This document shows, piece after piece, positions 7,561 to 45,702 of a stretch of DNA of 64,000 nt. Positions within the stretch are counted from its first letter, which is position 1. Each line of letters opens with the position of its first letter. The stretch lies in NCBI RefSeq assembly GCF_003086295.3, contig NC_092043.1, forward strand, positions 51,302,598-51,366,597. Direction: 5' to 3'. The notes beneath the pieces are model-generated. The model was not told the origin of the DNA and did not search any database. It worked only from the letters and a program-made list of their open reading frames with translations. The translations under genes were made by a program, and so were the position numbers. The DNA is from Arachis hypogaea (Eukaryota; Streptophyta; Magnoliopsida; Fabales; Fabaceae).

Positions 7561-8528
7561 TTAAAGCAAGTGTGTTTCAGACTTCAAAAGTAGAAAAGCA
7601 ATTGAATAATGATTTCATTAATTAAACCATATCCAAGACTTGGCCATATGAACATAACTCATATCAAAGAATTTGGAACCATCATTTAAGATCCTACTTT
7701 ACAAAAATATATTGTTCAACTATGTCTTTTTATCAATAAATCACAGTTGAAATCATAAATAATCATATGTTACTAAAATAAGAAGTTTTCTTAGTCTAAC
7801 ATGAAGAAAAAAACCAATTAAGATTGCAAGGGAACAAAAAAGAGAGATATGCCTTTTTTTTAAAGAAATATAAATACCAATTTAGGTAAAAACACACCAT
7901 TTAGACAACATAATAGAACACATACATAAGAAAGTTGAAAAAAAAAGGGCACAATTTTTTTCCCTTTATTTTCTTACATTGTTGTCTGATTTAGGAATAA
8001 AAGAATGTACCTTGGTAAGAAGAGGATTTAAGGAGCCTCTCAAGGAGATAACATCTAATAAAAAAAATTGAAATTGCAATAACCTCACTAAAATTCTATT
8101 ATAATTTTTTATGCTTAACTAAATACTTAATTTATCTAATAAATAAATAATTATTTAATTGGCAAAAGAGAACCAAGGTCTTAAGTTATAGGATTTTTTA
8201 AAAAATAAGTATTTTAAGTTTTTAACATACGAATGAAAAAATTCAAAGATAATATTTCTCATGGAGAAGACTGTACTTAATTAAATACTAATGAAGAAAA
8301 TCCTACCAAGTTAATGCATTGTTAGTCATTAAAGCCTCTGGTCCATAAACATGAAACCAAAACATTACCACTATCACACACGTGTACACACACAACAAAA
8401 GACACAAAGAAGCTTTAGACTTCATTGGCAATCCATTCAATCAGTTTTGGCTTTTATTTTTAATTTTGAAATACAAAATTATAGGGAACAATTTGTTATT
8501 AAACCACACAGTAAAAAATTGCACCAAG
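7561..8528. repeat. Duplicated segment Y, copy A (uninterrupted)
   Basis: This segment matches, in order and orientation, 20822-20970, then 34762-35045, then 46075-46150, 46662-46710 and 47206-47707. Copy A lacks the insertions found in copy B. The Helitron site is 7709-7712, where AAAAATATATTGTTC runs straight through. The foldback site is near 7925-7930 and the hAT site near 8018-8022. Identity is about 85-90% by eye. No coding capacity is evident. Confidence 0.85.
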
Positions 8529-18206: not shown

Positions 18207-20821
18207 GTAATTGAAGGCTAAGCTTTAAAGAAAGAAAATGGTTCATCAGCATTCATATATTACTCTACACCATAATTCTAATTGTTATATACTAGTGTTA
18301 TAAAATCATTGCTTAAATGAAAGTACATCCTGTAAATTATAAATTGTTTAAGATTTTAAAGTTATAAATTGCTGAATACAAGAAAATTTGGAGAATTCAT
18401 AAATTCATAAATTATGTAGCAAGATAGGGAAAAAACACCTTTTTTTTAATAATAATAATCAAATCTCATAAAAAAAAGGGACAATTTATCAACAAAAACG
18501 GTTCTCCCTGTTAATAGATACAAAATATAATAAGAGAAAATATAGTAAAAAAATGGAAATAGACAACAACATAGAAAAGTAGCACACAAATCTATTCATC
18601 ATCACTCAACTCGGGAAAAGAAGATTCATATGTGCAATTAGTAACTTCATTTACAAGTTTAAATTGTGCATGCATCAATAAGTTCCAACAGTACCCCTAA
18701 CACAATTAGAACTACCGATAAGATTATAGTTTTTTATTGCCAATAGCAGCTCATAGCGGTGAACAAAAAATTCGCCATAAAATTATGGTGTGTGGCATTG
18801 CAGAAAAAATTGCAAATATAATTAATTATAAAATTAAATTTAATCTATATAAGCATTTTTTTTAGTCATAAGATGTCCAACTAACGCAGCAAATACAGTA
18901 ACAAACTTAGAAAAATAAACAAAACATAAGACATACAACTTAAAAACTAAAACTTAAAATAAAGACCAAAACTATTCTTTAAACTAACAAATGACGAAAT
19001 AAACCATCTAAATTCTAACAAGAGACATTAGAGTCAGGGACTTGTCTTGAACTAGCATGGCAAACTGAAGGAAAAAAAATTGGAAGAGATGTTCATATAA
19101 CACTGATAAAAATAGGAGCAATCGAAAAAAATATGAAACTGTGGATGACAGAAAAAAAATAAGATGGAGAGTGGTTTGCAAAATGCAGAATGTATGATCC
19201 AGAGAGAGAAGGAACCGTGGTTTGAAGAGGGCGGCAATGCGGCGGCAAGCAGTGGTGGAAATAACTGCGCAACCAGAGCAAGGAGGGAGAAGTCGAAGAG
19301 TTTAATTTTTTCATTCTCTTATATAGAGTTAGTGTACTCATGGGCTTCTCATTGTTCTGGTCAGAAAGGAGTTGGGTGATGGGTGAGGAGGATAAGGAGT
19401 AGGGTCGGCAGATCATCCTAACCCTATTCGACTATATGTGTGCAAGACAAGAATAAAGCTTATTGCACGGGTTAAGGGATTATTTTGGCAAAGAATTGGG
19501 GGAATGAATTGAGAATCCAAAGGATGAATTAGGTGAATATAACCGCTCAAGTTGAAGAGATTAAATGAGACCATCCTTGCCATAGTTCCGGCGATGATGG
19601 AAGAAGCAGCGCCGTCGGAGAAGCAGGACACGTCGCTGCTGTTGCTTGGGCGCCGATGGAAATGTGGCTATGCTGAACGCCACTAAGATGCGAGGCTAGA
19701 CACACGGAACCAATACTTTTATGAGAAAGACGCTGCCGCCGGGGCAACCATCTTCTTTAGCTCTAGAGTTTTCTTCTTTACTCTGGGCTGTGTCTCATAT
19801 ACCAAAAATTTAAGAATTTTTATGAGTATTCATCCAAAAAAATTGTGTGTTATATAGTTCTATACTTTTATCCAAAAAAATATTTTAATATTTATTAAAA
19901 ATATAAAGCCCAAACTTTTTTTTAATAATTTTATAAAAATCAAGTAATTTGTTGGGCCTATTTTTTCTCCCTTGTGATAACCAAGTATTTTTATGAGCTA
20001 TAGTCCCACACTCTTATAAAACAAAACTAACAAAAATACTGGTTTGTACACTCGAGTGAGACACCAAATTTTTAACACATCATAATGTAATGTAATTCTT
20101 ATTTTAAGATTTTATATTTGTAAAACTTTGATAATATAATTTTGAATGGACTTAGTTTTGTATAAATTTTGAATGCAATGAGCCAATGACAATAATCTAA
20201 CTATTTATCAATATGAAATTTTAAACTTGCAAATATATAATAACTATCATTCTCTTCAATTTAGCTTCAAATTATTAACAAAGTTCAGGTATTACCTAAA
20301 AAATTATTAACTCAAGAATTAATTTAAACCAAATACACTCATTGCATTCATTTGGTGTTCCTACGCCTGCTAACTTAATCTAATTTTAATATATTTCGTT
20401 TCCACTTTTCATTAATATAGCTTAACCCATCCATTAGTGCAAAAAAAAACTAAAATTAGTAAATCGAAGATTAAGTTTAGGGACAGAAATACTATATTGT
20501 GATATTACAATATTAAAATAGCATACTATTATCAGTGTTTGAAAAAAATCCTAGAAAATGGCAGCATGATAATAGGTTATACATCTCTTATTATTGCATC
20601 TCTTATTCCTTTGTGAGTTTTTCTAACTTTTTCTCTTCGGTTAGTTAGTGTCACAGAAAAAAATCAACCATCAAATAAGATATCTAAAAAATAAAGTTGT
20701 ATTTGATTATACTTATAATGTTATGTACCTTAATAAATATAGCACATTGAAGTGCCCTGGAATAACAGGGATGGTATGAGCTTTCATGGTGTGAATGCAC
20801 TTTCCTATCTCAGTCTATCAA
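18207..20821. other. HAK upstream region and intergenic DNA
   Basis: This holds the HAK promoter side, whose elements are not identifiable by eye. A degenerate block near 18720-18790 (TAGCGGTG...) resembles common transposon debris. A GC-richer patch at 19160-19780 has open frames on both strands but no recognisable product; it might be an eroded first exon. The rest is AT-rich. Confidence 0.4.
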
Positions 20822-20970
20822 TTAAAGCAAATGTGTTTCAGACTTCAAAAGTAGAAAAGCAATTGAATAATGATTTCATTAATTAAAGCATATCAAAGAC
20901 TTGGTCGTATGAACATAACTCATATCAAAGAATTTGGAACCATCATTTAAGATACTACTTTATAAAGATA
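20822..20970. repeat. Duplicated segment Y, copy B, first part
   Basis: Matches 7561-7709 with the same orientation. It ends exactly at the left end of the first Helitron; the match resumes after the second one at 34762. Confidence 0.85.
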
Positions 20971-22954
20971 CTAGTGTAAAACCCGGGTTATGTACGAGAC
21001 AAATATTGTTTTATTATAAAAATTTATTGATACTTATTTATTGATATTAATAATTATTATTTTTAACTTTAAAAGTTTTCATATATAAAAGTTAATTATT
21101 AAAAGTATAAAACTGTTTCAATCTCTATTTAATAAAAGCTAAAATAATGTTGTTATTTTTTAGTTTGTATTAGTAAATTCTACTTAAATATAAAAATTAT
21201 TATATTTGTGTGTTTAAATAAATATTGTTACGCGATTCCTATTGTACTATTTAAAAAAATTAAAATTTTAATCAAAATAGTTTATATTCTAATCACACAA
21301 ATAACAAATAAAATAAATTGTGTATCATTTTAAAGAAGTTCCTATTTTCTGAAGAAAAAAATAATTATATTAATTAAAATACAAATACTTAAAAAAATTA
21401 TTATTTGTACACTAAATATTTTTTGTACCTATATAAAAATATATTTATTATTAATTAATCACATATATAAATTATTTTTAATTAACAAAACAGAAAAAAT
21501 TTGTGTATAATTGTTAAAAAATACTGGTATCAAAATAGTATTTATTATAAAGATGTATATACATCAGGAATAACAAAAATTAACCACTTAAATTGTTTCT
21601 TTTAGATATTCATTACTAATAAATTCATAAATATATCTTACTTTTTATTGTAATATATCCACCATTACCTAAATTTTGAATAAAATAAAAAATATATTTA
21701 ATTTATTATTTACCATAATAGCAGTAAAGATGATAAATTTTATTTGTTTGTTTAATTATTCAATAGAAGATTTTTACATAATATCTAAAAATAGAAAGAT
21801 AAAAATACTTCTTACAAAAATAGTAATAATACATACCACCATCATCTCCTACACAAATATGAAAATTACAAAAAAATTTAAATATGAGATCATTTTTCTA
21901 TTTTATAAAAAAGATTATTATTATTATTATTAATAACAAAAAACACTAATTATAAGAAAAATACTGAAGTAGTGAAAAACAAATAATTTTGATACGATCT
22001 AATTTTTTATATGGTTTTCGAGTCTCTGCGTATTTGATAGTTAATATTTTTTATTACTATTATTTGGTAAGTATTTTGTGAGTTAAATAAGATATAATTA
22101 TTTATTTATTTTACCAACCTAAAATACCAATAAAATCTTAAAATTTTATCCTTTAATTAATACCGCATGAAAAACACTTACCATTTGACAGGTATTTTTT
22201 AAAATGACAATTTCAACTCCCAAGTCATAAAAAGCTATCCATGGAAAGAAGTACACTAATATCCCAAACATATTACACAAAAATAAAACCAATTTTTAAG
22301 GACAAATAAATTATAACACCGTATAACGGTATAAAAATAGATGTCTTATAATACATTTTCTAATTCATGTATTTCAAACATTTCATAATACTGGAATCTC
22401 AAATTATCACAGTCAAGATCGAGTTAAGTAGTGCAAGAGTTGCACTACTGAAGCAATCAAAGACAATATATGCCTATTGGTTGCAAAAGAAAAAATTAGT
22501 CTTTAAAAGAAGAACACACATGAAAAGTAAAGAAAATACCTTGACATAACCCAAAATCATCACATCAAACTCAGAAATGCAATGTCAGATAAAGAAAAAA
22601 AAAACACAAAACAAATAGTGTCTCAAGCTGATAAAGTGATACCTTAACTACAATGGACTTATGTTGGAGGATAATGACAGTATTGGAAGAGCACTCATAA
22701 TCTGCAAAAATCATTTGGAAGGACTTGATTGAGCATCCTCACATAATCAATTTCCTACTCTGAAGTTGAAAAAAGGAAAAAAAATTATTTTTTACAAAAT
22801 GAGTGAAAAGAAATCTGTACAATTATCAAATTGTTATAGTTATAGATTTCTCTCTGCTTGCATTCCGAACCTTAATGGCGTTTTATGTAACTTTTTCTTA
22901 AAAGAAAGAAAAATAAAAATAAATTTCTGCTTTTAAAAAAGAAAAATTACCCAG

Positions 22955-23103
22955 ATTGCCGATGAAAGGATCTCCGAGCCCTCCATTCTTTTGACCGGTG
23001 TTTCAACTTGTTGCCAACTTCTACTTCTTCACTGATGACAGTAACACCACTCACCATGCCACTATTCTTTCTGCTTGCAGCTGTATCAACAGTCACCGTC
23101 GGC
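22955..23103 (-). other. Unidentified exon-like fragment in Helitron 1
   Basis: After a CTATCAG acceptor at about 23104 a minus-strand frame encodes about 50 residues without a stop (TVDTAASRKNSG, then SEEVEVGNKLKHRSKEW), giving a hydrophilic, basic peptide. I do not recognise the source gene. Splice-like borders and codon use suggest another captured exon. Confidence 0.35.
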
Positions 23104-26100
23104 TGATAGAAAATAATTTATTCTATATTAAAAATATAAAAAAATAAAAAATCACAAAAATAGTATATACCTCACAGGGTGATATAAAACCATTTTGACC
23201 TTTGTCAAAAACATTAAAATCCAAAAAAGGAATACATTTTGAGCTCCTCTTTTGCATCATTTTTGAATTGCAATTGGCATTTTTTAAAAAAGGGAATACA
23301 TTAGAATCAAAAGAAAGCTAAAATTCAGGATGCTCTTTGATATTTTGTTTTAAACATACCAAAGTTACAATGCAAAGATTCTCAAGAATGGACTCTCAAT
23401 AAGCAAACTAAACGGGTTTGAAGCAAATTTCTGTTTTATTTTATTAGGGAATTATTTGAACAACTGATGCATCAAATTGAATCCATTCAAAGAAACCAAA
23501 TTTCAGCTAGTGAAAACAACAATTTCATCATTGCAAAATAAAATTTTTTTTATAAAATTGCAAAGGTTAGTAATCAAACACGTAGCCCCATATGTTTTCT
23601 CCTTAGAACTGCTTTTGTGCCACCTTTCTCCTCTTCTTCTTGAGCTTGTGAAATCCAGTCACATAGTCCCTTCACAACCAAACTAAAATTCCAACTTTTA
23701 TTAATATTAATATCATTATACACTTAAACTCTAAATCACAATCACATAAGTTGCAAATTTTTTCAGCACAAACAAAAATTCTAGGAAATCAAAACCAAAA
23801 ACAAAAACAAAACGGGGCACCGCCTATTTTTCTTGGCATAACGAAGAAATAAAAAGGATTCATCATCAAAACTACCAAACTTGGAACTCACCAGAAATAA
23901 AATTACTAAACTAACATCTTCTTTTAAAGGAATCATGGACAATTCCAATCAGAAAATATTGCTTTCGACGTGTTGTTTCTTAATTCAAACTCATAAAAAA
24001 CACAAAGAATTAGTCTTTATCTCAAGATATTGTTCTTACCAAAGCAGTTCACACACAAATCATCTATATTTACTGAAAATTAACGTAACATCAACCAAAC
24101 GATCAGCGAGTGGTCAAGTCACTGCCTAAACAAGTGCAATAATTTAGCTCAACTAACCAAAATTGCTAATTAACACAATGCTACTTACCTAACACATACA
24201 TGAGACCAAGAAGTAAGTCAATGATGGCTTGAACTCAAAAAATTAAATTGCCGCTGAAACTAACAGATTGGCAAAAGATAATCCTACCGATATATCTGCT
24301 ATCCAGACTCCAACAGAGTTTCAGTAATATGAGTATCCCAAAAGTTTTCCATTAATACAGAACAGGCTCCCATGAATACACCTCCAATGTTATTAAGTGA
24401 AACTGGAAGGGTATGCGCAATCCGCAGGAGAACAAATTTTGACCAAATGAAGAACAAATTTAAAAGATGAAAAACTGATCAGCTACACATTAATTTTAAA
24501 TTAGTTGTACAGTCCAAAAACCTTGAAAAAATATTCTTACAGATTTTTTTTGGCATTACTTGATGATCTTCATTGCTCCAAACTTATCTGGTATAGAATG
24601 TCCAAAACCAAAGTATTCTTTCTTCTTTATATGTTATAGAATAAGGGCTGCTGATTACAGGCATCAAACCCAAATAAATAGAATAATCAAGAGTACTAAA
24701 GAGGATAACAAAAAGTATAACAAAATTTAATCAAAACCCAAAAATGAAATGATAGAATAATACCTCTGTTTGGGTACAGTACTATGGGGAGGTTTTTATA
24801 TGATTCATATTCGATTGCATCGGACTGGACAGAGTAAGCTGAGTTTGCATCATCCCACCCTCTTCTCCTTCTTCTGCCAGGCTTCCTTTCGTCACCATCG
24901 TGATTTCTTCTTCTTCATAACCATGACAAAATACTCACTTCCATTAGTATCATTATCAGACACTTATAATCTATATCACAACCACAAAAGTTGCAATTTT
25001 TTACAGCACAAACCGAGAAAACAAAATGGGAGTCTCCTATTTTTTTCGGCAGAAGGAAAAATAAGAAGGAAAACATGAAGGATTTTAAGTACTAACTGAA
25101 ACCCCTAGTCGGACTTGGATGAACAAATAGTGGCGGTGCCTCTCGTCGACAACAGGGTCTAAATCTCCAACGTACGTCAAACGTGTAATGAAGTGGTTCC
25201 TCACAGCTGGGCTTGCTGATGAGAGAAAAATACAAAGGAAACACATCAGCTTGTCTGTAACTCAAAGGCCTTAGCCTATTGTAATCTTCTTGTCTTATAA
25301 TCCACAGAATTAATCCATATAATATAAGCATTGTTAACAGCATTAATGATGTAACATCAGAAACAATACAAGATGAACAGCTTTAACAAAAACATCTTAC
25401 CTAAAAGTATGCTCAAAATAGAGCCTTTTTGTTTTCTTTTTTTTTTCTTTAATTTTTTCTTATAGAAGCAAAAGAGAGGGACAAAGCTCTTACCAGTACT
25501 CGAAAGTATGCTCAAAGTAACTCAGCTCGCACTGCTTCAGAGGAGTAAGCCTCCCTTGAACCAAAGACATGCACAACACCACTACACATGTTCACATTTC
25601 AGCTTAAAATGCTCTTACAGAATTATTTTTTGCTTACTTGATGATTTTCATTGCCCCAAAATTATCACTTATAGAATTTCCAAAAACAAATTCTTTTTAT
25701 TCAAACCAATTCCAGCTAATAAATTGAGAACTCAAAACATCTTTCCAGAAAATTCATATTGGCATATGTGAAGTGTTAGTGATGAGATGATTGACATACC
25801 AAATGAAGAATTTTTAACAATGTGATGCTGGGTGCAAATCCATAACACTGTTAATTTAATCTTGGATCCAATTAGTTAAATAGAAATATCACTACAGAAG
25901 AGGATAGAAAATAGTATAACAAAATTTAATCAAAATCCAAAAATAAAATGATAGAATAATATCTGTCTGCTAGGGTACTTTGGGAAGCTTTGATATGATT
26001 CATTTTCAACTGTATCGGACTGGATAAAGTAAGCTGAATTTACGGCAGGCATTGATGGAAACTTATATTTTTGGTTCTTTGGCTTTTGATTGCAGTTTAT

Positions 26101-26967
26101 AGTAAAGGAAAGCAATTAACTATTTTTTCTGTTGAAGTTAATGTATTAAAAGGAATTATATATTTAATGTAAAAGTATATATCTATAGATATTTGAATTG
26201 CATCCACAACCTAATCAGCAATATAAAGTTACATTGAATAAGTGGCTAATAAACAATCACAATGATAATACGGTTTAATAATCAAATTTCACTATTTTTG
26301 TTGAGTACTCAGACGTACTCTCTCCCTAGGTTTTCCTCTAATGATGTGTATGAATATCCTTTACACTTTTCAACTTTCAGTTTATTAAAACCCGACTCAC
26401 AGGCCAGCTTGATGGAAAGCTAAAGCTTGTATCACCAAATAAAAGAGAAGGAAATCAAACAAAATAGTCGAGTGAGAAAATCTCTTAATAGTTTCTTGTC
26501 CTTCTCATACAGTATAAACTTCATTAATATTTTACTCAACATACATGTTGCATTTCAATAAAAAAAATATTTAATGGCAGAAAATATCAGGAGAAAAAAA
26601 CACAGCTCGATTCCTACTACTACTCTCCTATTTTCAATATACAAATCCTAAAATTATAATGGAACCATCTCATCAAAGCATCACATGTTTAAGTTACAAA
26701 TAAAAAATCAACTGCCCTATGTTCATCAGAATTTAATTTAATTAAACCAAAACTTTTTTTAATTCTTACCAATGCTTTTAAATGATGAGGTAACTATTTT
26801 TAAAGATATATACTTCGTAGAATAATCTTTAAGCTTCAATTACATTGCATCATAATAAAAACAAACCAACCCATAAATAAATAGTCAAAAGTGAACTGAA
26901 AGAACAAAGAGAACTCAAAAACCACCTCACCTGACCAAAAAGAATATTATGCACAACGAAGTCAATC

Positions 26968-27049
26968 ACAATTCTCAGCTTCTTTCCTCACCACATCAAG
27001 CACTGAATCCATCAACTCAGCGCGTTCCATGTAGTGTCCTTTCGCCCAG
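26968..27049 (-). pseudogene. Beta-tubulin exon fragment in Helitron 1
   Basis: After a TATTAG acceptor the minus strand encodes [20 protein letters not shown] and then RKEAENCD, the conserved beta-tubulin segment that lies before its nucleotide-binding G-box loop. It follows the phosphatase fragment in the Helitron sense. Similarity stops after NCD, where unrelated sequence with an in-frame TGA follows. Only about 27 codons were captured or survive. Confidence 0.8.
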
Positions 27050-27215
27050 CTAATAAAAAATTATGTTCTCAACAATTTAAAGACTCATATATAAAAAAGC
27101 CATACAAATTTGTTAAGTAATAAGTGAGTTAAAGACTTTACACAATTGAAAACTCTTCGGAGTTCCTGGGCCTGGATATACAGAAACATTTGTAAATTCC
27201 AAGTTAAATACTTAC

Positions 27216-27319
27216 ATGATATAATGATGACGGCACCACCGTTTTATACTGTTCATTCAGAGAAATTACACCTTCAACACCAAGCTTCTTCAAGTCAGGA
27301 ACATCTTTAGGGGATGGCA
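27216..27319 (-). pseudogene. PTPMT1-type dual-specificity phosphatase exon in Helitron 1
   Basis: One exon with a GTGCAG acceptor and a CAT/GTAAGT donor encodes PSPKDVPDLKKLGVEGVIS and then LNEQYKTVVPSSLYH. This matches the segment upstream of the catalytic loop in plant phosphatidylglycerophosphate-phosphatase/PTPMT-like enzymes. The exon with the CX5R active site is not found nearby, so it cannot be functional. The borders are intact, meaning that the fragment was taken from genomic DNA with introns. Confidence 0.78.
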
Positions 27320-27954
27320 CTGCACCCAGCAACAAAAACGGTAATCAACAACAAACACACTTCAGTTAAACCACTAATCATGGAGACAAACAAAAATTAC
27401 AGAAAATAAAAAAAATGGAGACTTGCCTATTTTTGTCGGCATAAGAAGGAAAAAATAGGAAGGAAACATGAAGGATTTTAAGTACCTCATTCTTGGTTGA
27501 ACTGAAACCACTTGCCGGACCTGGATGAACAAATCATAAAGAACTGGTTCATCACATTCGAGGTACCTACCTCCGGTTACGAAGGAGCGGTTGCGATGCT
27601 GTTCTGCCGTGGACACGGTTCTGCAGTCGACACCCATTCGTCGCCACCTTCTTCTCCTTCTCTGTTATATTTTCTTCTTCTGCTTCGTTGTGTCTCTCTC
27701 ACCATTAACCCTCTTTACCTGCAATGTCGTCGGAGGAAGTCTTTTCCCAACCACCGCCATTCTCTACCTTCTCTTCCAGCTACTCCTTCTGTCACCGCGA
27801 GCTTCTTCTATCTTGTCCGTGAGAGAGAGAGCGAGAAAGAAATAAGAGAAAGAGAGAGATGCAGAAATTCAAAATTTGTTCACTCAATTTTTTATTTCAA
27901 ATACTGTGATTTTTTGTTCAAATTCTGATCTTTTGAAAAAGATCCCGCTCAAAA

Positions 27955-28370
27955 CCTTTTCTTTGTTTGAGTGGAAAATGGAAAAAAAGAAAAGGAAGGA
28001 AAGAAAATGGGAAGGAAAATGATTATTTTTCATTGTTTGGTTGAAGAGGAAAATTGAGGGGAAAGAAAATGGATAGAAAAAAAAGTGGTGGGGTCCATCA
28101 ATTTGTTTTCTCTCCAACATTGGAAAAAAAATGGAGAGAAAACTAATGTTTCTCTCTACTTCCAATACTACCTCTTCACTTTTTTCAATATATATTATAA
28201 TATGGGGGTAAAATTGTCTTTTTATAACATTTCTTTCCTTCTTATTTTCCTTCCAACTAAACAATCTAAAGAAAATAAAAATTCACTCAATTTTTTTCCT
28301 TTCTTTTCTTTCCTTTCTATTTCTTTCTTCTCTATTTCTTTCTTTTCAATCAAACATAGCTTAGAGTAGT
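27955..28370. repeat. Purine/pyrimidine inverted repeat near the Helitron 1 5' end
   Basis: The left half is rich in GGAAAATGG/GGAAAGAAAATGG words and the right half in CCTTTCTTTTC words, forming loose inverted arms around about 28160. The outer parts contain TTGTTTGAGTGG and its counterpart TCAATCAAACATAGC. It resembles a MITE-like foldback of a sort common in legumes. Boundaries and duplication are not clear. Confidence 0.45.
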
Positions 28371-28985
28371 CTTGTTTTTTCCAATTTTTTGTGCTACTTA
28401 TCATACAAATAAATTAGACATATCGACAAAATAGACTATATACTTGTCAAACATTCAACCAACTCCTGTTCTCCTATTATATATAGAGAGATACTAGTGC
28501 ACGACCCGTGCACGGCACAAAAATAATGAAAAACGTTAAATATATCGTATATGTTAATTAAAACTGAAAGGCATAAAATTAGTATTCAATTAATTTAAAT
28601 AATAAAAAATTATTAATTTATATAAATATATATATATAATATAATAATTAATATTTAAAATACATAAAATATTTTTTATAATAATTTAATTTATATAATT
28701 TTATAATGGTAGATAAACTATTAAAAATAAAAAAATACTAAAATCTTATGTTCTATTTAAACGTATCTTATATTTTTTTTCAGCCAATTTGTTCTTATTT
28801 TAAGCTCTAAGCATTAAGTTTTAAATTTTGTATAATTTGAATTTCATTATTAAATACAAAAAGAATAAATTTTATGGTGATATAAATTATCCCTTTGTTT
28901 TTAAAAGTGTTCCATCTATTAGATAGGATGTAATATTCAAATCAACTAAGAAAAAAAAAATCTGTTCAAAGATCGCATCTCCCAG

Positions 28986-29135
28986 TTTACATGTTTCTTG
29001 GCTTTTATGAGTTTATTAATTCAATTATATTCTTGTTATCTAACACCAACTTCAAATTGTTTTACATGTTTCTTGGCTTTTATGAGTTTATTAATTCAAT
29101 TATATTCTTGTTATCTAACACCAACTTCAAATCGT
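28986..29135. repeat. 75-bp perfect tandem duplication
   Basis: Units at 28986-29060 and 29061-29135 begin TTTACATGTTTCTTGGC and are identical until the last bases. The length is a multiple of three, so an open frame runs through both, but nothing else suggests that it is coding. Confidence 0.9.
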
Positions 29136-29771
29136 CAATTTTGGCATGTACAACATTTACCAATAAATTTGCAGTGTATCTTCATTAGCTTTTTTTTGTA
29201 CCATTTTTTCTATCATGTACACCACTTTATTTTTTACTTTAGATTATTTATCTTCATTGACATTAATTATTGTAGGGAGTCAAAAATAAAAAATACAGAA
29301 AAAAAAGTAAAATAAAGAGGAAACAAATGTATTTTATATGCCATAAAAAAACACTAAATAATGGAAAGAAAAAAAAATCAAAATTGAGTAACAATAGTTA
29401 ATAATAATAAAGAATTCGAGTTTTTAAGCTTATATCAGTTGTAAATGGTAGGTTATGCATGGGATGTGAATGAATTATTGTAACCAAGTTAAATACTGTA
29501 TTTTGACATTTATTTTCATGTAGTTCATTGGTCTAGAATTCTCACGGTTTTCAGATTTTATTGATTAACATTAGTTTTGAATGTGGAATCACCAAAAGAA
29601 GCCATTTAGATAAAGGAAAAATTGGTAAAATTGTGTGTTGAGACAAAATGAGTTAGTCATTCTCCTATATTACATTACACAAAGAGCATTTTGAAAGCCA
29701 GCCATCCCAAAAGTATTTGCTTTTAAATGAAGTTTAACATGGTAAACCAAATAGGCATGCAGATGAAGTAC

Positions 29772-30287
29772 CTCATAACAGTAATGGATATGAAGTTTTT
29801 TTAAATCCCTACAGCCAATAGGTATACCACATATAGCACCATCCCCAAGGTTTGAGTAATTTACCTTTTGAAGAATTTATAGGAACTTGCATCCTTTTCC
29901 ATCTTGAAGAAGACCAACATTAACAATTCTTTGATAGTAAAGTAATGCCAACTCAATAAGATGTATGTCATTAGAAAGTCGAGCTTAGCACCACAAATGA
30001 AAAATACAGAGAAACACACATAGCAAGCAATGAAAAACTTGACCAAATGTAAATATAAAGAGGCCAAACATGTGTCCCATGCTTCCTTATGTTGCCTATT
30101 TATTGAACGGTTAATTCATTCCTTATTTTACATACAAACTGGCAAGATCTTCCAATGGATTCTAGCCACAAAGCTCGAATATTATGACATCCATTGACTT
30201 AAGATATGTAAGTTCCTTGCATCCGGTAGCAATTGCTTCCAAACCCTTGCGACTTAGTATTAGATTCCTTAACTTGCAAACAAATTC
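29772..30287 (-). pseudogene. F-box/LRR protein (FBL4-like) fragment captured by Helitron 2
   Basis: FBL4-type proteins are SCF ubiquitin-ligase substrate receptors with AMN1-like leucine-rich repeats. The first exon (30287-30136) encodes LSRKGLEAIATGCKELTYL, then shifts frame to NGCHNIRALWLESIGRSC. After an intron, the next exon (about 29965-29772) reads ALLYYQRIVNVGLLQDGKGC, then NLGDGAICGI and IGCRDLKKLHI, ending at a proper GAG/GTACTT donor. It carries one frameshift near 30190 and one TAA where the family has glutamine (after CKFL). Exon order and introns are preserved, showing capture from genomic DNA in Helitron sense. No F-box is present. Confidence 0.85.
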
Positions 30288-31180
30288 CTGAAATTAACCA
30301 TTATTCAAAGAAAGGAGATTACTAACTAAAGCAGGAAAATAATGATAGAATTCTTAGCAGAATTCAGAATTTAACAATTGGAGACATGAGGAAAGATTGT
30401 GCAATTGCATGCAACAACACTTAAGGATCATGCAAATGGAGCTAAATAAACAATATAGTTAAGCTTATATAACTAAATGTGCTTGAACACTATCAAAGCA
30501 GTGTCAACATTGTAAATAACATGTTAAATCATATAATGATTGGTTGCATGATGATAGTTGAAAGACACAAAGCATCATATGGTACATTCAACATGGCTAA
30601 TAATTTAATAAAAAATAGCAGCATTCATTTACATATATGGTGCATTCTTTCTAATTTATAATCTTCGGGATCTGATTATTCTTGCTTATAGTTTCATTCT
30701 TGTCTATCTGGTTAAAAAGGTACATTCCAAAATTCTAAAGAGAAATGGTATATTAGCACTACAAAATTTATGCCAAAGAGCATACATCTTGTAATGATGA
30801 AGCAGTGACTGCATATTATTTTTTGTTTCCTGCAACTCATCTCTTTACCTAAACATCCATACAATTAGTGAAGCTCTTTCCCAAATCAAAATCAAGTTGC
30901 ACCAAAAAAATTATCATCAAGTACAAACCCAATCAATTGGTGAGACTTTAAGTAATAAACCAAACTGAAAGTTTGACCCATAAACCTTACAATGACAAAA
31001 ATAAAAAACCTATAAAATAGATAATAAATCATTAATAATTTACCTCATTAGTAAGCTTCAAATACAATATACCCTTGTAAAAATTTCAGATTCATCTAAT
31101 GTATTTGGTCTTCAATCCATGTCCCTGAAATTTTAAACACATTATATGAAACTAAAAGAAATGAATCATAAGATAGTACT

Positions 31181-31181
<1 letters not shown>

Positions 31182-31234
<53 letters not shown>
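31182..31234. repeat. (ATA)n microsatellite
   Basis: About 17 uninterrupted trinucleotide units inside Helitron 2, likely to vary in length between genotypes. Confidence 0.95.
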
Positions 31235-31506
31235 TTCATTTTATTTACCCACAAAAAAAGAAAGATTAAATAAAACTAAGTGATAGCATCCATGTAAAAA
31301 GCAGCTTCAGGTGAGTAATTTTGTATCAACAATTAATGATTATCTTTGGCTCTTTTGGAGCTTATAAGAACAAAAGGAACCCCTATTTTGAAGCAGAAGT
31401 GAGGTGGGCATTGTGCATACAAAAGCAGTTATACACCAAAATGCATTACGAACCATAAAGCTATCATAAACACTAACTGATGAGTGAGAAAGAGAGAGAT
31501 AGAGAA

Positions 31507-31617
31507 AGTGACCTGAACAATGGAAAACTCCAAAATCCATTCACGCTTGAAAACGTAATGCAACCCAAAAGGTAGACCAATGGAGAAACCCTCAACTTTA
31601 CCCTTCCAATCACTCAA
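31507..31617 (-). other. Unidentified exon-like fragment in Helitron 2
   Basis: A minus-strand stretch reads SDWKGKVEGFSIGLPFGLHY and then FKREWILEF, ending at a CAG/GTCACT donor-like site. It may be a captured exon. I cannot name the gene. Confidence 0.3.
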
Positions 31618-34039
31618 AACCCGTCACTGATTGCCCTAATGTAGTTGTCGATGCCGCAAAGAGCAAGAAAATTAACGAAACCCTGGCAGGGGCATTCCTT
31701 GCAAGGTCTAACTCGTGTGTAAAAACATGCTTGGGCAAGTATAGTTCCATATGTTTGACCCTAAAACTTGGTTAATAGCCATGGATAATAACACAGACCA
31801 GAGAGTAAGAGCCCTTTCCTATGATTAAGATCATCTACATTGCAATGATACTGTCACCAACTTCACATGCTACATAATATCACAAAAGTCATGTAAAATT
31901 ATAAATATACATTAATAGAGCAGCAGTCAAAATAATAATGATAATAAGAGAAAGGAAAAGTATGAGAAACCAATGGAATATTTATACAATGTGTACAATG
32001 GAGGTTTATGGAGTATTAGAGATATAACCATTAGTGTTACCTTTTCCCATTAGCTGAAGCTTTTGGGATGAGTGGTATCATGATATGGTATTAGAGCGCT
32101 AGATCCGAAAGGTTTAAGTTTTTGGGAAGATGTTTATTATTCCTAGTACTCGGATGGTTGTTCTAAATAGTATGGGGGATGTTCATTTTGTAACTCAATA
32201 GCCCATTGTACACATTGTACAAATAGTCCATTGTCTCCCTAGCGGGATCCTAAGAGAAATACAATTATGGACGTTCAAAAGAGCATAGAATATTATATAT
32301 CACATAAGCAAGTCTTTTGAGAACTTCATAGCTCTAAATCATTTAAGAAATATGAATAGCTATTTTTCTAGAAAATAGGATGCACAATGTACGCAATCCA
32401 AAATGGTTGATCTCTAAACTCTCATTATGTAGAATAATAGGTTCTCATAAATGGAAGAGTCTAAGAAAGAACTATCTTAATTCTATAGGAACAGAAGCTT
32501 TCAAAAGAAAAATTGAAAAAATAGTTTAAATGCATATATTTGCCAAACATAAAATTTTCAAGATAAAAGTCACCATCTCAACAAAAATTAGCTGAAAAAA
32601 TATAGCATGTGTAGTTAGAGCGTGAATATTCAATAATAAAAGCTAAAGCAGAAAAAAATAAAAAGCTTCATGATTCTTTTTAAAAAAATAAATTGGCTTC
32701 TTATTTAATTGGATCCTTATATAGAGGAGAAATTTGCCATGTCTAGTAAGATATTTAGATAGTACATGTACTAAGATTGACAATAGTAAAATAATAAAGT
32801 AGTGAATTGAAATTTACACCTTGAATTATGTACTTCTGCTGATAGTGGATTTAGATACCGAAAGCACCCACCAATGTTAGTATAGAAAAAGTTTTCCTAA
32901 AAGAAAAAGAATTAACTAAAATAAGAAAACATACTAACCTGAATTTAAGTCTTGAACTCTATTATCATTAATACCATATAAATTGATGTTCAATGCTTAG
33001 TTAACATATAATTTGGCTACATGTATAGGGTGCATCCCATATCTATCCTTAAACTCTAAGAAAACATAAAATTTGAATACAATCCTATGTAAATTTAGAC
33101 TATCATCTTCTAAAATAAATAGAATTTAATTAGATGGTAAATGAAGACTACCATCGTGTTTATGCTTTGAAATCAGCGGACTCAAGTTGTTCCCCACTTC
33201 CCCCACCTTGTACACTAAACCAATTTATTTAAAAAAAAATCACGATGGGTAAGATCACAAAATTTATTTCAATTGCAAGGAATATAACAAAGAGATCCTT
33301 CTTACATATTGCTATTGCTCACTCCCAAATACCGAACCAATCTCTGTATTTCTGCTGCATGCTCTGCTGCTTCAATACCCGTTTTGTATTAGACTCGGAA
33401 ACTATCTCAAGCAAAGGTGCCTTGCTCTACTTAGATCAACCATTCAACCTACCATGAAAACACCAGAAACTTCAACACTCTTTTATCATGGATACAGGTG
33501 GTTGAGCATATTATGTGTGATCTAACCATGAAATAACTAAAGGTAGTCGAGGGATTGTCCAAATATAGATGTGTTAAAAAAATATGTAACTCAGTACAAC
33601 AGATGCACAACAAATAAAAACAACATATTAAGCACTAACGTTAGAAATAACTAAAGTTCCAAAAAAGAGGAAAAAAGAATTACCTGTAGATACCAAACTC
33701 CATGATCAAAGCTCAAAAGGAGATACCGAACCATGTTTCACAGACAGCTGATTTGATTTTGTTGTCTAATACTGCAGCTCCCAGTATTAGAGAGCGAGAG
33801 AAAGAGTGATGAGAAGAAAAAATTGGAAAACATTATTTGTGAGGATAATGAAAATGAACATGTACAAATGATTTTTTTTTTCAAATTAATTTTCAATTCA
33901 AAATTTAAATTTTGAAATAATAAAATTTGTAGATTAAACAAATAATAATCATTTACATGATTTATCTAATTAATTAATTAAAACAAACAAAATAATAACC
34001 ATGAACGCCGATTAGATCTCACAGCTCTGTTCTGCTGTG

Positions 34040-34340
34040 CTTTCGGCTTTCATAGTCTCACTGTATGTGCTCTCTATGAACGCCACTTAGTACTTTCCAG
34101 CTATATGCTTTCTTCCGCTGCTTCCTCCTCCGTATCCATCACCACACATGGATAGTTACCACGAACTCCACCACACCCACTGCGACCACCACGTCATACC
34201 ATCGTCCACCACCACAGCAATCGGCACCTCATCCACCGCCGTAACCCTACCACCACCGCTGGCGTTGCCTCCACCGCGATGACTCCCCTGAAGTTTGGAG
34301 CCATCAGGTACAATGACATCTTCTGCCTTGGTGAGTACAT
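34040..34340. other. GC-richer block near the Helitron 2 5' end
   Basis: CCACCAC-rich sequence with an open stretch ending in LKFGAIRYNDIFCL followed by a GTGAGT donor on the plus strand. It may be the first exon of a captured gene, in antisense to the Helitron. The source gene is unknown. Confidence 0.3.
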
Positions 34341-34761
34341 GAACTTTATAACCTCCATCTCCAACTTAATTAGGAACAGGAAGAAGAAACAAACGGAAGA
34401 AGGGAAGGAAAAAAAGAGGAGGAACTGACGATGAAAGAGAAGAATTAAAGAAGAAGAGGAGGAAGAGAGAAAAATGAAACAGAGAATGGAGAACGTAAAT
34501 GATGAAAAATTGGGAATGAATTCCTTTTTTAATTGATTTTGAATTCGAAATTTGAAATTTCAAGGGAGTTTGTACATGTAAAGTAGGCACGATGTTCAGA
34601 AGAGTAGTGGAATGCGAATGATTTGATCATGGGGTATTATTGTAATAAACACCATACATAAAAAAATTTGAAAAAATCTAAAGGATGCCACATAGGAATT
34701 CCACTACTGAATAAACCTTCTTTTAAAGGATTGTTATAGAATAGAATAAGACAGGATAAGA

Positions 34762-35045
34762 TTGTTCAACCATATATTTTTATCAATAAATTTAGTTCTG
34801 TCAATAACTTATAGTTCACAGTTATAATCGTAAATGTATGTTACTAAAATAAGATGTTTTCTTCGTCTAACATGAAGAAAAAAACCAATCAAGATTCCAA
34901 GTGACGTATCTAAATGGTCATTTTTTATTAACCAAGAACATGGAAGGGAACAAAAAGGGAGATATGCCTTCTTCTTTTAAGAAATACAAATACCAACTTA
35001 GTCAAAAGCACACAATTCAAACAACACAATAGGACACATACCTTC
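34762..35045. repeat. Duplicated segment Y, copy B, middle part
   Basis: Matches 7712-7928 with some length differences (for example GTTACTAAAATAAGA and GGAGATATGCCTT-type words). It ends where the foldback element begins; the match resumes at about 46075. Confidence 0.8.
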
Positions 35046-36172
35046 GGGAGATTCTATGGTGCTTATAGTTGAAAAAAGCATAGTATGCTGACTATATGTG
35101 TCAAGAGGAGAAGAGTGACGCGTAACTTTGTATGCTTGTTTCTACCTCACACTGTCACTTTTATACACATAGTTACAGTCACACGTATAATTTTTCGTTT
35201 CTTATTATGAGTTAAATTACAGCATAATATTTTGATTAATTTTTGAAAAGCTGAAATTTATTTTTGATAATGAACTGAATTTATTTAATTTTTAGACTTT
35301 TAACTGGACTTATAATAGTTGATATTTTATAGACCAAAACTTGATTGAAATCATATATAATAAATATATATAATTTCTTGAAACTTAAAAAGAATATATA
35401 TATATAACTCCTTCCGTACAGTAAAAAAATTATATACACGCTACCTTTTTTAATGTAGTTTTTTATAATTAATATCCCATGACACATCAAAATAGACAAA
35501 AAAATATTCTTAAAAAATTAACAATAATTTTATAAATTCCGTAACATTAGTTATTATAAAAACTTCATTTCATAATATTCGCAAAAACTACTAATCAGTT
35601 TATTTGATATTTTAATCTAATTTATTATTTTATCTCTATTTTTATTCTTAATTATTTATATAGTTTAACTAAGTTATTAATCATAATTGTAGATTTCTTG
35701 TAATAATTGCAATTTCATTTAGCTAGCAACATGAATTAGATTTGTTAGTTAGGTTGGTGGAGTTCGTTAATACAGAAATAAGTTTTTGAATTAAGAAAAA
35801 TAAAAAAAATAATTAAAAATTGAGAAAAAAATTATTACTAATAATAATGTATAGAATAAACTAAGTGTGAGTAACAGTAATTTTATTTTTGATAAAATTA
35901 GTAGTTATGAGAATATGATATCTTTTTGCCTTTAAGAATTTGAACAAAAATTTATATTTAATATATAAAAAATATTATGTATATATTAAAATTAATTATT
36001 ATGTATTTAATCATAAATACATGTATTGTATGTTTAATTAATTTTTAAATTATTTTAAAAAATGATCACATTAAAAAGTATTTACTAAAAAAAAATAATT
36101 CTTTTAAAAAATAAGTTATAGATTAAAAACATGAGAAATGATAATTTTATTTCTATTTTTTGATAATGTTAC

Positions 36173-36702
36173 TGTTCATACCCTGGCCCAATGATAAAGG
36201 CCCAGGTCCAAATAGAAAGGCTTAATCCGAAGAATTAAGCCTAGCTAAGCACCGACCTTCATATAAGAAGTCGGTGTTGACTACGACTTACTTCGAAGAA
36301 GTCGGACATGAGGTTAGCTGGCGGATAAACACTCATTTGAATGAGTAACTGCCCCTAAAATCTCTCTAACCGCTTCATCAAGCCATATCTTAACCTCCCT
36401 AAGATAGAGGGACGGTTAACACCCAAAAGATACGGCACTACTCCAACGGTGGTCATTGGCTCACCACTATAAATACACTGACACCCCTCAGGTATCTCTA
36501 AACCCAGTACTCTCTAGACCTGCTAACGCCCTTGCTAACTTAGGCATCGGAGTGTCTTTGCAGGTACCACCCCCCCATTCACTCACGCACACAAGTCGGA
36601 AGGAGGCTCCAGCGTGCGAACCAGCTCGGAGACTACCATCCGCGGGCGATTGGGCCAACCAACGTCATCTATTCTGTTAATCTCCGGTTACCCACCGTAA
36701 CA
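36173..36702 (+). repeat. 5' LTR of the gypsy element
   Basis: Begins TGTTCATACC and ends CCGTAACA. A TATAAATA box lies at 36468-36475 and is the likely promoter of the genomic RNA. Confidence 0.93.
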
Positions 36703-36720
36703 TTGGTGCCGTTGCCGGGG
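36703..36720 (+). other. Primer-binding site, tRNA-Asp type
   Basis: TTGGTGCCGTTGCCGGGG directly follows the 5' LTR. Apart from one G-T wobble position it is complementary to the 3' end of plant tRNA-Asp, as I remember that tRNA. Confidence 0.7.
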
Positions 36721-36740
36721 ACCCGAGAGATCATCCATCG

Positions 36741-38972
36741 ATGGCGGACAGATCCCACGAAGAAGGCCATGTGGAGACAGATTCTGAGCAAGAGAATCTG
36801 GACACAGGCAATAACGATGTGGACCTCGCCCTCCACCAGGAAGTGGATAATCAGCATAGAGAAGGCACCTCCGGGGTAAAAAACCCGAAGGTAAACTCCT
36901 CAGAAGGGCGCGAGTCACAGAAAGGAGGACCATCCCACGTAACTGAACTCATGGGGTTAATCCACAGCCGCCTGGAACAGTTAGAACAAGAGCGGGAGCG
37001 GCAAAAAGAAACCGAAAAGAGCCTAAAAGAGGAGATGGAACGACGAAAAGAGTTGGAAAGAAAACTCTTGAAGTTAGAATCCTCCCTCAAAGGTCGTAAC
37101 TCCCGTGATGAACAAGAAGAACTGCCTTTAGGTGGGGAGGATCCTTTTAGCGAGGACATAATGAGAGCAAAGGTTCCGAGGAACTTTAAAAGCCCTGACA
37201 TGGACCTCTACGATGGAACCACGGATCCAAAGCATCACCTGAGTAATTTCAAAAGTCGGATGTATCTAGCCGATGCTTCCGACGCTACGCGATGCAAAGC
37301 TTTTCCGACCACTCTATCAAAAGCAGCGATGAAGTGGTTCGACAGCCTCCCCCCGAGGTCGGTTACTAGCTTTGAAGACCTCTCAAGGAAGTTTTTGATG
37401 AGGTTCTCAATCCAGAAAGACAAAGTGAAGCATGCACCGAGCCTCCTGGGAATAAAACAGGAGGTCGGAGAATCTTTACGAGCCTATATGGAAAGGTTCA
37501 ACAAAGCATGTTTGGAGATTCAAGACCTGCCCACAGAGGCAGTCATAATGGGGTTAGTCAATGGACTCAGAGAAGGTCGCTTCTCACAGTCCATATCTAA
37601 AAGACACCCCGTTTCTCTAAGTGATGTACAAGAAAGAGCTGAAAAGTACATCAATATGGAGGAAAATTCCAAATTGAGAGACCTGAGCTGGCGACTTGGG
37701 GTCCCTCCCTCAACAAAAGAGAGGGAAAGGGAAACCAAGAAAAAGGAAGAACTCGGTCTCGAGAGGCCAAGGAAATATCACTCTTATACTCCACTGAAAG
37801 TTTCTATAGTGGATGTATACAGAGAAATTTGCAACACTGAAAGACTGCCACTCCCTAGACCCATTAAAAATAAAAAAGGGGGGAGCCGCAGCGATTACTG
37901 TGAGTACCATAAAATATATGGTCACTCCACAAACGACTGCTACGACCTTAAAAATGTGATAGAAAAGCTGGCCAGAGAAGGTCGGCTTGATAGATATCTC
38001 ATAGAAAGGTCGGACAGTCATGGAAAGAGAAAGCGAGATGATATGGATAGAAGAGACCCACCACCGCAGACTCCAGAAAGACATATCCATATGATCTCAG
38101 GAGGGTTTGCGGGAGGGGGACTCACCAAATCCTCTCGCAAAAGACATCTCAAAAGAGTCTACCAGGTCGGGGAGGAGTCACCCGACCTTCCTACCATTTC
38201 ATTCACAAAAGAAGATGGGCAAGGAATAATCCCTGGACACGACGATCCAGTGGTAATAACTATGATCCTAGCAAATGCCCATCTCCACAGAACCCTAGTA
38301 GACCAAGGAAGCTCGGCAGACATTCTCTTTAAGCCTGCTTTCGACAAGCTAGGGTTAGATGAGAAAGAGTTGAGAGCCTACCCTGACACCCTATACGGAT
38401 TAGGGGACACGCCAATAAAACCACTAGGATTTTTGCCCCTTCACACCACTTTTGGAAAAGGGGAAAAATCAAAGACTCTGAGCATAGACTTCATAGTCAT
38501 CGACGTGGGGTCAGCATATAATGCTTTAATCGGCAGAGTTACCCTTAATCGGCTCGGAGCTGTGGTATCCACTCCCCACCTCTGCATGAAATTCCCGACC
38601 TCAGCGGGGATAACAACGGTAAGGGGGGACCAAAAATTGGCAAGGAAATGTTACAATGAAAGCCTAAATCTGAGAGGAAAGAACAGAGAAGTTCACATAA
38701 TAGAGCTCGGCGGCGCAAGGGCCAGAGAAGAGTTGCGACCACAACCGGGAGGAAAAACCGAGGAGATACAGGTCGGCAAAGAGGAAGGGAAAAACACTTA
38801 TATAGGAGCCGACCTAGAGGAAACTCTAAAACAAGGGTTGGCAAAACTCCTAAGAGCTGGAAGCCGGCTTTATCAGAGAGGTCAAGTACCCAACATGGCT
38901 AGCCAATGTAGTGCTAGTCAAAAAACAGAATGGCAAATGGAGAATGTGTGTCGACTATACCGATTTAAATAA
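36741..38972 (+). pseudogene. Gypsy gag-protease, running into a broken pol
   Basis: The open frame of 743 codons starts at the first ATG after the primer-binding site. It encodes a Glu/Lys-rich coiled-coil region (about residues 70-125), a retrotransposon gag domain (about 150-320, with MDLYDGTTDPKHHL) and a CEYHKIYGHSTNDC zinc-finger-like motif near 393. A retropepsin-type aspartic protease follows, with DQGSSADIL near 523 and ALIGRVTLNR near 600. Gag packages RNA and the protease cuts the polyprotein. At about 38855 the normal frame is lost: a stretch of roughly 50 codons between protease and reverse transcriptase seems deleted out of frame, so the ORF ends in aberrant residues at 38972. 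Confidence 0.85.
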
Positions 38973-41790: not shown

Positions 41791-42654
41791 AAGCGAACTC
41801 TACTCCCTGATGTACTCTTTTCCCAACTTCATGATTTTTTCCCAAAAGGGTTTTTTCTGAAGAAGGGTTTTTAACGAGGCATCATAGTAGAGGCTAAGGG
41901 AAGATAGGCTATAAAAACCCTTAGAAGCAAGAAGGTACCTCCCCAATAAATAAAGATCTTTTTCATCTACAATATCTCTTATAAAATCCTTTTTATTTTT
42001 TATAAGTCTTTCTACGAAACGCGCCGACTTAAGCTCGACAAAACGTGAAAATCCTATGAACCGACCTAGATGGTCGTCAGGATAAAACGATGAGGTACAA
42101 GTCGGTGTAAAGAGGTTATATAAGTTGAACGTGAAAACTCGGGAACAATCCGACTCATAAGTCGAAATGAGAACCCGAGCAGAAAAGCTCGGAAATACTC
42201 CGACCCGTAAATCGGAGCGAAGAACTGAGTATAAGAGAAACGTATCGCAAAAATAACCTAAGTCACAAAAACTCGCTAAAACAAAGTCGAGTATAGGGGA
42301 TAACAAAAAGAGATTGGAAAACCTAGGAAAAAGTTTAAAGGCTGTCCCAAAAGTCCTTAAACAAGAAGCTCAGAAAAACAAACAAGCCAAAAGGAAAGGT
42401 TTTCAAGAAAAGATCAAGGGGACTTCAAAAAACCAAAAAGCATACACGCATAAGGTAATCTAAACCCTTATCCCAAAAGGGTATCCATTTTGTTAACTTA
42501 AAAACCCTCATCAAAAAAGGATATTTTTTAAAATATTTTGTTTACGGCCTGGGGAGGCCAGAAGAAATTGTTCAAACCACACAACCAGTTATAAATAAAT
42601 AAAGAGTTTAAAAATGGGGGGGCCCACAGGCCGGACCCCCCAAATAGCCAAAGA
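41791..42654. other. Non-coding part of the gypsy element between pol and antisense ORF
   Basis: Short repeats of the AAAAGG/TCGGA type and GAACCCGAG-like words are present. No coding region is supportable. It may be the 3' untranslated part of both the sense and the antisense transcripts. Confidence 0.45.
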
Positions 42655-44489: not shown

Positions 44490-45053
44490 TTTCTTTCTCT
44501 AAGGAAAAATGAAGAAACCTACAAAGGGAAAAAGAAAAGAAAAAATCAAAAACAAAGGTCTCTAGAGAGGAGAAAAAGGAACCAAGCAAAAGTCCATAAA
44601 CCTATTTCTCTACAAAGTAAAGTCATACAAAAAGTGCGAAGAAGGAAAAAGAAGCTAACCGCTTTCTGAAAATGAAGGTTGGAAGAAGCAGAAGTCTCCG
44701 GAGCACGAGAACACAGTACAAATAAATGCAGCACGAACAAAGAAAGAAGAAGTTTGAAAGATTGCAGAAACGGAAAAATGAAAGAGAGGGAAAGTATTTA
44801 TAAACATGCTAAGGGGCATAATGATAAAAACGGAGCAGTCATTAATGAGAGTGCACCGTTATCAAAGCCATCAATCCCTAAATGCATCTCTAACGGACAC
44901 GACGCTTGAATAGACGTAACTGTCAGAAACAAAAGGTCGCGAAAATCACGTCGGTTTAAAAACCCGTGTTTCCTCCAAGAAAGTCGGCTACGAATTCGAG
45001 TTGAATACTTGAACCCAAAGCCCTAAAGAGATCTTGGGCTCAAGTAGGGGCAC

Positions 45054-45582
45054 TGTTCATACCCTGACCCAATGATAAAGGCCCAGGTCCAAATAGAAAG
45101 GCTTAATCCGAAGAATTAAGCCTAGCTAAGCACCGACCTTCATATAAGAAGTCGGTGTTGACTACGACTTACTTCGAAGAAGTTGGACATGAGGTTAGCT
45201 GGCGGATAAACACTCATTTGAATGAGTAACCGCCCCTAAAATCTCTCTAACCGCTTCATCAAGCCATATCTTAACCTCCCTAAGATAGAGGGACGGTTAA
45301 CACCCAAAAGATACGGCACTACTCCAACGGTGGTTATTGGCTCACCACTATAAATACACTGACACCCCTCAGGTATCTCTAAGCCCAGTACTCTCTAGAC
45401 CTGCTAACACCCTTGCTAACTTAGGCATCGGAGTGTCTTTGCAGGTACCACCCCCCATTCACTCACACACACAAGTCGGAAGGAGGCTCCAGCGTGCGAA
45501 CCAGTTCGGAGACTACCATCCGCGGGCGATTGGGCCAACCAACGTCATCTATTCTGTTAATCTCCGGTTACCCACCGTAACA
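45054..45582 (+). repeat. 3' LTR of the gypsy element
   Basis: Same ends as the 5' LTR. It is followed by the GTTAC target duplication. Differences from the 5' LTR are eight transitions and one missing C in a run of C. Confidence 0.93.

Positions 45583-45640: not shown

Positions 45641-45698
<58 letters not shown>
45641..45698. repeat. (TA)n microsatellite
   Basis: About 28 TA units within the right arm of the foldback element. The corresponding place in the left arm (about 35395-35405) has only a few units, so the tract expanded after insertion. Confidence 0.95.

Positions 45699-45702
<4 letters not shown>

What the first reader, a model, noticed from the sequence alone, without database searches (positions are those of the whole stretch)
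20971..34761. Two Helitrons inserted side by side, two bases apart, with the empty site preserved in a paralogous copy
Helitron 1 (20971-28491) and Helitron 2 (28494-34761) lie in the same orientation, separated only by TA. Removing both restores ...AAAGATATATTGTTC..., which matches copy A at 7700-7715 (AAAAATATATTGTTC). The reconstruction is self-consistent: Helitron 2 entered ATA|TTG first, then Helitron 1 entered the A|T two bases to its left. Both have TC 5' ends, CTAG 3' ends and A/T flanks. Such base-level evidence for two separate events in one AT-rich pocket is rare from a single sequence.
Basis: partly seen in the sequence, partly recalled or inferred. Interest (0 to 1): 0.8.

Follow-up and report, generated by a model that had tools for sequence, protein, structure and literature searches.

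The report
Two neighbouring Helitron transposons, empty site
In a large plant genome two jumping genes of the Helitron kind sit two bases apart in one copy of a repeated stretch while sister copies of that stretch are still empty, which is a neat, base-exact example of a situation already described in maize and bats.

Summary
Two inserts, 20971-28491 (H1, 7521 bp) and 28494-34761 (H2, 6268 bp), read 5'-TC...CTAG-3' on the MINUS strand between A and T, separated by TA. Removing both gives AAAGATATATTGTTC; the two closest paralogues (in-window copy A; copy C, 13 kb left of the window) read AAAAATATATTGTTC with the same spacing.

H2 is a Helitron by descent: its 3' end recurs at about 15 places with different flanks, its 5' end in 20 other copies read, and one of its two closest relatives has a clean empty site. 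Unexpected: this family's 5' end is a variable pentamer array, A|(TCCTA)nTAACAATCC, n = 1-5; H2 has five degenerate units.

H1 is a Helitron by structure only: the searches meant for its own ends were swamped or unanswered, and its 3' hairpin is weak. The order of insertion (reader: H2 first) cannot be read from the site. Neighbouring Helitrons are on record in maize and Myotis (PMC2267711, PMC4778049), so the pair is a new example of a known thing. The pentamer array is the more novel part.

The parts
20971..28491 (-). Helitron 1 (H1), 7521 bp, non-autonomous
   Evidence: Empty-site alignment; 5' TCTCTCTATATATAATAG from 28491 downwards, 3' ..AACCCGGGTTTTACACTAG ending at 20971; A/T flanks; longest start-to-stop ORF overlapping it is 138 aa. 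Recurrence of its ends not established.
20971..21000 (-). H1 3' terminus with palindrome AACCCGGGTT, 9 nt before the end
   Evidence: folding energy only -1.3 kcal/mol for the last 30 nt; tied 4th-7th of 254 CTAG-ended 40-mers of the window by likeness to a family 3' consensus.
28492..28493 (.). TA spacer of the target between the two inserts
   Evidence: Present in copies A and C at the same place.
28494..34761 (-). Helitron 2 (H2), 6268 bp, non-autonomous
   Evidence: Both ends shared with dispersed copies.
28494..28523 (-). H2 3' terminus: short hairpin followed by GTCGTGCACTAG|T
   Evidence: -10.4 kcal/mol for the last 30 nt; in 25 of 30 family loci read (H2 included) a CTAG or CTAA end could be placed, each followed by T.
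34737..34761 (-). H2 5' terminal array of five degenerate pentamers TCTTA TCCTG TCTTA TTCTA TTCTA
   Evidence: Compared with 20 other 5' ends A|(TCCTA)nT AACAATCC.
20708..20970 (+). Left flank, copy B of the local duplication
   Evidence: 94% to copy C; the part shared with copy A is 95%.
34762..35041 (+). Right flank, copy B
   Evidence: Aligns to copies A and C.
7561..7925 (+). Copy A: paralogous empty site (H1 point 7709|7710, H2 point 7711|7712)

Best explanation
Two non-autonomous Helitrons of different sequence inserted independently, in the same orientation, at two A|T dinucleotides two bases apart in a short AT-rich target (82% A+T over 62 bases), within one copy of a locally duplicated stretch. 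Mechanism (inferred from established Helitron biology): a Rep/helicase encoded elsewhere nicks 5' of TC, peels the strand off to the hairpin/CTAG end, and joins it between A and T without target duplication. Shown: boundaries, empty site, membership of H2. Inferred: mobilisation in trans, independence of the two events, Helitron identity of H1. Order unknown.
For: Exact empty site with spacer in two close paralogues; TC/CTAG/A-T at both inserts; H2 3' end: T follows in 25 of 25 loci where an end could be placed, of 30 read (the script sought CTAR within 12 bases of the expected end, so CTAR is by construction, the T is not); H2 5' end: A precedes in 21 of 21 read, H2 included (with L070 set right by its empty site); one of the two closest relatives has an empty site TTTTTCCAA|TATACAG at 96%; H1 and H2 share no long similarity, so they are not tandem copies of one element; none of the other 24 H2-type 3' ends placed is followed by H1's 5' end, so no second copy of the pair was seen.
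Against: H1's hairpin is weak and recurrence of its ends was not established. The distant paralogues are mostly 2 bases shorter at the spacer, so the ancestral TA rests on two copies. The empty sites are paralogous, not allelic. No Rep/helicase partner was searched for.
Confidence: 0.8

Rival explanations
1. One event: H1 and H2 moved together as a compound element (3'-end bypass), inserting 20971-34761 at once.
For: Both lie in one orientation, and the compound would also start TC and end CTAG between A and T; 17 of 20 distant paralogues are 2 bases shorter at the site, which would fit an ancestral site without the extra TA. Bypass of a 3' end is documented (PMC4778049, passages).
Against: The two closest copies carry the TA; none of the 24 other H2-type 3' ends placed is followed by H1.
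Confidence: 0.08
2. H1 is not a Helitron but another insert (for example an element giving a TA target duplication) beside H2.
For: The left flank ends in TA and the spacer is TA; H1's hairpin is weak; recurrence of its ends not established.
Against: No terminal inverted repeats at H1's ends by eye; TC/CTAG/A-T is met exactly, an unlikely chance combination (my rough estimate from base composition, order 1e-5 to 1e-4 for a fixed insert).
Confidence: 0.1
3. The occupied state is ancestral and copies A and C lost both elements by precise excision.
For: Putative Helitron excision has been suggested (PMC2267711, PMC4683698, passages).
Against: Would need precise double loss in two paralogues plus absence in 20 more distant loci.
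Confidence: 0.02

Closest known systems
Adjacent Helitrons No.1/No.2 in the maize r1 region (Du et al. 2008, PMC2267711)
   Same: Two different gene-carrying Helitrons, head to tail, argued to be consecutive insertions; order unclear (passages).
   Different: The maize pair abuts directly (G/T junction) and has line-by-line presence/absence data; here the elements are 2 bp apart, each with its own A/T site, and the empty site is paralogous.
Helibat elements inserted right next to another Helitron in Myotis (Grabundzija et al. 2016, PMC4778049)
   Same: 5' end of one Helitron beside the 3' end of another, with empty-site evidence mentioned; AT-rich target preference of Helraiser (passages).
   Different: Animal families; direct abutment.
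Non-autonomous plant Helitrons (maize and rice, PMC2575219; Mothra in rice, PMC4683698)
   Same: TC and CTRR ends, A/T target, no Rep/helicase gene of their own (passages).
   Different: H2's family has a variable pentamer array at the very 5' end; I did not see this described in the passages read.

Membership tests
Helitron (H2) | 5' TC and 3' CTRR ends | tested here: met
   the insert edge is TC, while the innermost repeat unit reads TTCTA against TCCTA in the 20 other ends read.
Helitron (H2) | 3' hairpin about 10-12 nt before the end | tested here: met
   (-10.4 kcal/mol) and the aligned family ends.
Helitron (H2) | Insertion between A and T, no target duplication | tested here: met
   Empty sites.
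Helitron (H2) | Dispersed copies share its ends, flanks unrelated | tested here: met
   about 15 independent 3' ends by eye and 20 other 5' ends.
Helitron (H1) | 5' TC and 3' CTRR ends, A/T target, no target duplication | tested here: met
Helitron (H1) | 3' hairpin | tested here: inconclusive
   Weak fold; likeness to the family end not above other CTAG sites of the window.
Helitron (H1) | Dispersed copies share its ends | tested here: inconclusive
   One search was swamped by a high-copy repeat from about H1 base 129 on; later searches unanswered or capped.
Autonomous Helitron | Rep/helicase coding sequence inside | tested here: not met
   Longest start-to-stop ORF overlapping either insert is 138 aa. 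Only 7 of the segments were scanned with Pfam, none matched; no Rep/helicase profile was run on the DNA, so decayed remnants are not excluded.

The most novel reading that the evidence does not exclude
The H2 family's 5' terminus is an element-borne, length-variable pentamer array, (TCCTA)n, in which every intact unit restores an A|TC nicking site; the array would act as a buffer of redundant 5' ends, so that a copy whose innermost TC is mutated (as in H2, TTCTA) can still be cut at an outer unit. Evidence: n = 1 in 12, 2 in 6, 3 in 1 and 5 in 2 of 21 ends read (one mismatch per unit allowed; L070 corrected from 3 to 2 by its empty site), against 1.6% of window pentamers within one mismatch of TCCTA. 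For H2 (paralogous empty sites) and for the C9 copy the extra units are absent from the empty site. The self-insertion route for gaining units was tested and not seen; multiple cutting was not tested.
Probability: 0.3. Interest if true: 0.5.

Novelty: new member of a known kind. Interest (0 to 1): 0.32.

Why it matters
It gives base-exact evidence for two Helitron insertions in one small AT-rich site, in line with the known A|T and AT-rich preference. The variable 5' array, if general, would bear on how Helitron transposase chooses the 5' cut and would affect annotation of Helitron ends, which usually assumes one fixed TC.

Tried and rejected
Considered that H2's 5' edge was wrong by 20 bp: relatives L066 and L068 begin at TCCTATAACAATCC or TCCTATAGCAATCC, which maps to 34741. 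Rejected after reading 18 more ends: the 20 bp are four further pentamer units, and the paralogous empty sites put the insert edge at 34761.

Considered that pentamers are gained by Helitrons inserting into the TCCTA|T of a relative: the predicted junction was searched with up to 3 mismatches and found 0 times (reversed control pattern: 1 forward, 2 reverse).

Looked for an empty site of the relative at C8:41.1 Mb: its two flanks match different places (C18 and C20), so nothing was learned. Looked for another copy of H2's first 34 bases: only itself within 3 mismatches, so no donor with the same array was found. Four places with the 15-mer AAAGATATATTGTTC showed no similarity to the flanks. 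Pfam and PDB gave no firm name to the gene-like pieces. Two paper searches aimed at variable or repeated 5' ends listed nothing on it by title and abstract; absence from print is not claimed beyond those listings.

Full report
The window is C8:51302598-51366597 of a 2.557 Gb genome in 440 contigs. Size and contig lengths (C8 51.5 Mb, C15 160.0 Mb) look like cultivated peanut to me; this is recalled and was not tested.

Observation. On the minus strand the first insert, H1 (20971-28491), reads TCTCTCTATATATAATAG...AACCCGGGTTTTACACTAG, and H2 (28494-34761) reads TCTTATCCTGTCTTATTC...GTGCACGGGTCGTGCACTAG. Each has A before and T after it. Between them lies TA. Joining the flanks with the TA gives AAAGATATATTGTTC. 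Copy A in the window and copy C (C8:51289161, 94% to the left flank) read AAAAATATATTGTTC at the same place with the same number of bases. Twenty more distant loci (19 distinct places) also span the site without inserts, but 17 of them are two bases shorter there and three align with gaps elsewhere, so the spacer is supported by two close copies and not by the distant ones. Copies A, B and C belong to a local duplication several kilobases long.

H2, 3' end. A search with its last 300 bases gave 54 matches, 40 of 77 candidates being scored. Thirty loci were cut out and read. In 25 of them (H2 itself included) a CTAG or CTAA end could be placed within 12 bases of the expected point, and each is followed by T; in five (L032, L035, L038, L048, L056) none could be placed. 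Of the 24 others, L053 repeats L052, L055, L058 and L059 repeat L054, and L046 duplicates L045, leaving 19. Of these, L040/L042, L052/L054/L060 and L036/L039 have related flanks (clusters or duplicated regions), so about 15 are independent by eye. The shared end is a CCCGTGC...GCACGGG-type hairpin followed by about 12 bases and CTAG.

H2, 5' end. A search with the first 300 bases gave 48 matches including H2, 40 of 72 candidates scored. I read 20 of the 47 others: 18 as short stretches, and L066 (C10) and L068 (C2) from longer stretches fetched earlier. L066 and L068 are 95% identical to each other over their long aligned blocks, about 84% to H2 over its 5' part, and end at the same 5' and 3' points with different flanks. 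In one search the base before the end is A in 20 of 21; the exception, L070, becomes A when its outermost 'unit' TCCAA is recognised as host sequence from the empty site.

The 5' end turned out to vary. The common core is TCCTAT AACAATCCTTTAAAAGAAGG. In 12 of 21 ends one TCCTA unit stands there, in 6 two, in 1 three, in 2 five (one mismatch per unit allowed, L070 corrected from three to two). L080, L086 and L087 have further broken units upstream, so their counts may be too low. L081 and L083 share flanks and are probably one old insertion seen twice. H2 has five units, each with one change: TCTTA TCCTG TCTTA TTCTA TTCTA. Its two nearest relatives (95% over query bases 15-300; C9:117.07 Mb and C8:41.14 Mb) have two units. 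The C9 copy has a clean empty site on C19 (96% over 115 bases), TTTTTCCAA|TATACAG, against TTTTCCAA|TCCTATCCTATAAC...CTAG|TATACAAA, so its two units came with the element. The same is indicated for H2 by copies A and C, which are paralogues and so weaker evidence. For the C8:41.1 Mb copy no clean empty site was found.

How units are gained is open. Insertion of one copy into the TCCTA|T of another, followed by mobilisation from the outer end, would add one unit each time, but the junction it predicts was not found. Replication slippage or use of an outer A|TC in the donor remain. H2's units differ from TCCTA at 5 of 25 bases, four of them C to T, which would fit cytosine deamination; this is inference.

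H1. It meets the structural definition but not more. Its 3' palindrome folds weakly, and its likeness to the family 3' consensus is no better than that of some other CTAG sites in the window (tied 4th-7th of 254). A search with its first 300 bases scored 40 of 579 candidates; the 39 matches besides the locus itself begin at query base 112-136, that is, they are a high-copy repeat inside H1 and say nothing on its end. A search with the first 126 bases and one with the last 300 did not complete and then met the cap. A piece of H1 reads VPSPKDVPDLKKLGVEGVISLNEQYKTVVPSSLYH, which I recall as like a plant PTPMT-type phosphatase; pieces of H2 look like an F-box/LRR protein (best PDB match E = 0.31, F-box/LRR-repeat protein 2; no PDB match for the H1 piece). 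Pfam gave nothing for seven pieces. Both namings, and gene capture, are leads.

Order. Whether H2 went in first at TA|TTG and H1 then two bases to the left, or the reverse, the final sequence is the same.

Chance. With about ten thousand Helitrons in a genome with a few hundred million A|T sites (assumed round numbers, not measured), a pair within two bases would be expected of the order of once even without site preference; AT-rich preference (shown for Helraiser, PMC4778049, passages) raises this. So the pair needs no special mechanism.

Literature. Passages seen: PMC2267711, PMC2575219, PMC4778049, PMC13286980, PMC4683698. Search listings only.

Noticed in passing
36173-45582: An LTR retrotransposon with LTRs 98.3% identical and a 5-base target duplication GTTAC lies in the right flank of copy B.
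   Followed up: partly
35051-35406 and 45688-46041: Inverted repeats of about 355 bp, 85% alike, bracket the LTR element; copy A lacks the whole stretch, so a long-TIR element probably inserted there first. No clear target duplication seen.
   Followed up: partly
4456-5035: Exact 291-base tandem duplication (100% identical).
   Followed up: no
G000 C17:1085379-1096241 and C1:6776997-6784374: Clusters of H2-type 3' ends in one orientation, a possible Helitron array or tandem duplication.
   Followed up: partly
28192-28363 (inside H1): A high-copy repeat (579 first-look candidates) begins about 128 bases from H1's 5' end.
   Followed up: no
29673-30293 and 27207-27344: Gene-like fragments inside H2 (F-box/LRR-like) and H1 (phosphatase-like), named from recall with only weak tool support.
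   Followed up: partly
L080 and L087: Upstream of these 5' ends stands TCCTATAA, like a truncated second 5' end of the same family.
   Followed up: no
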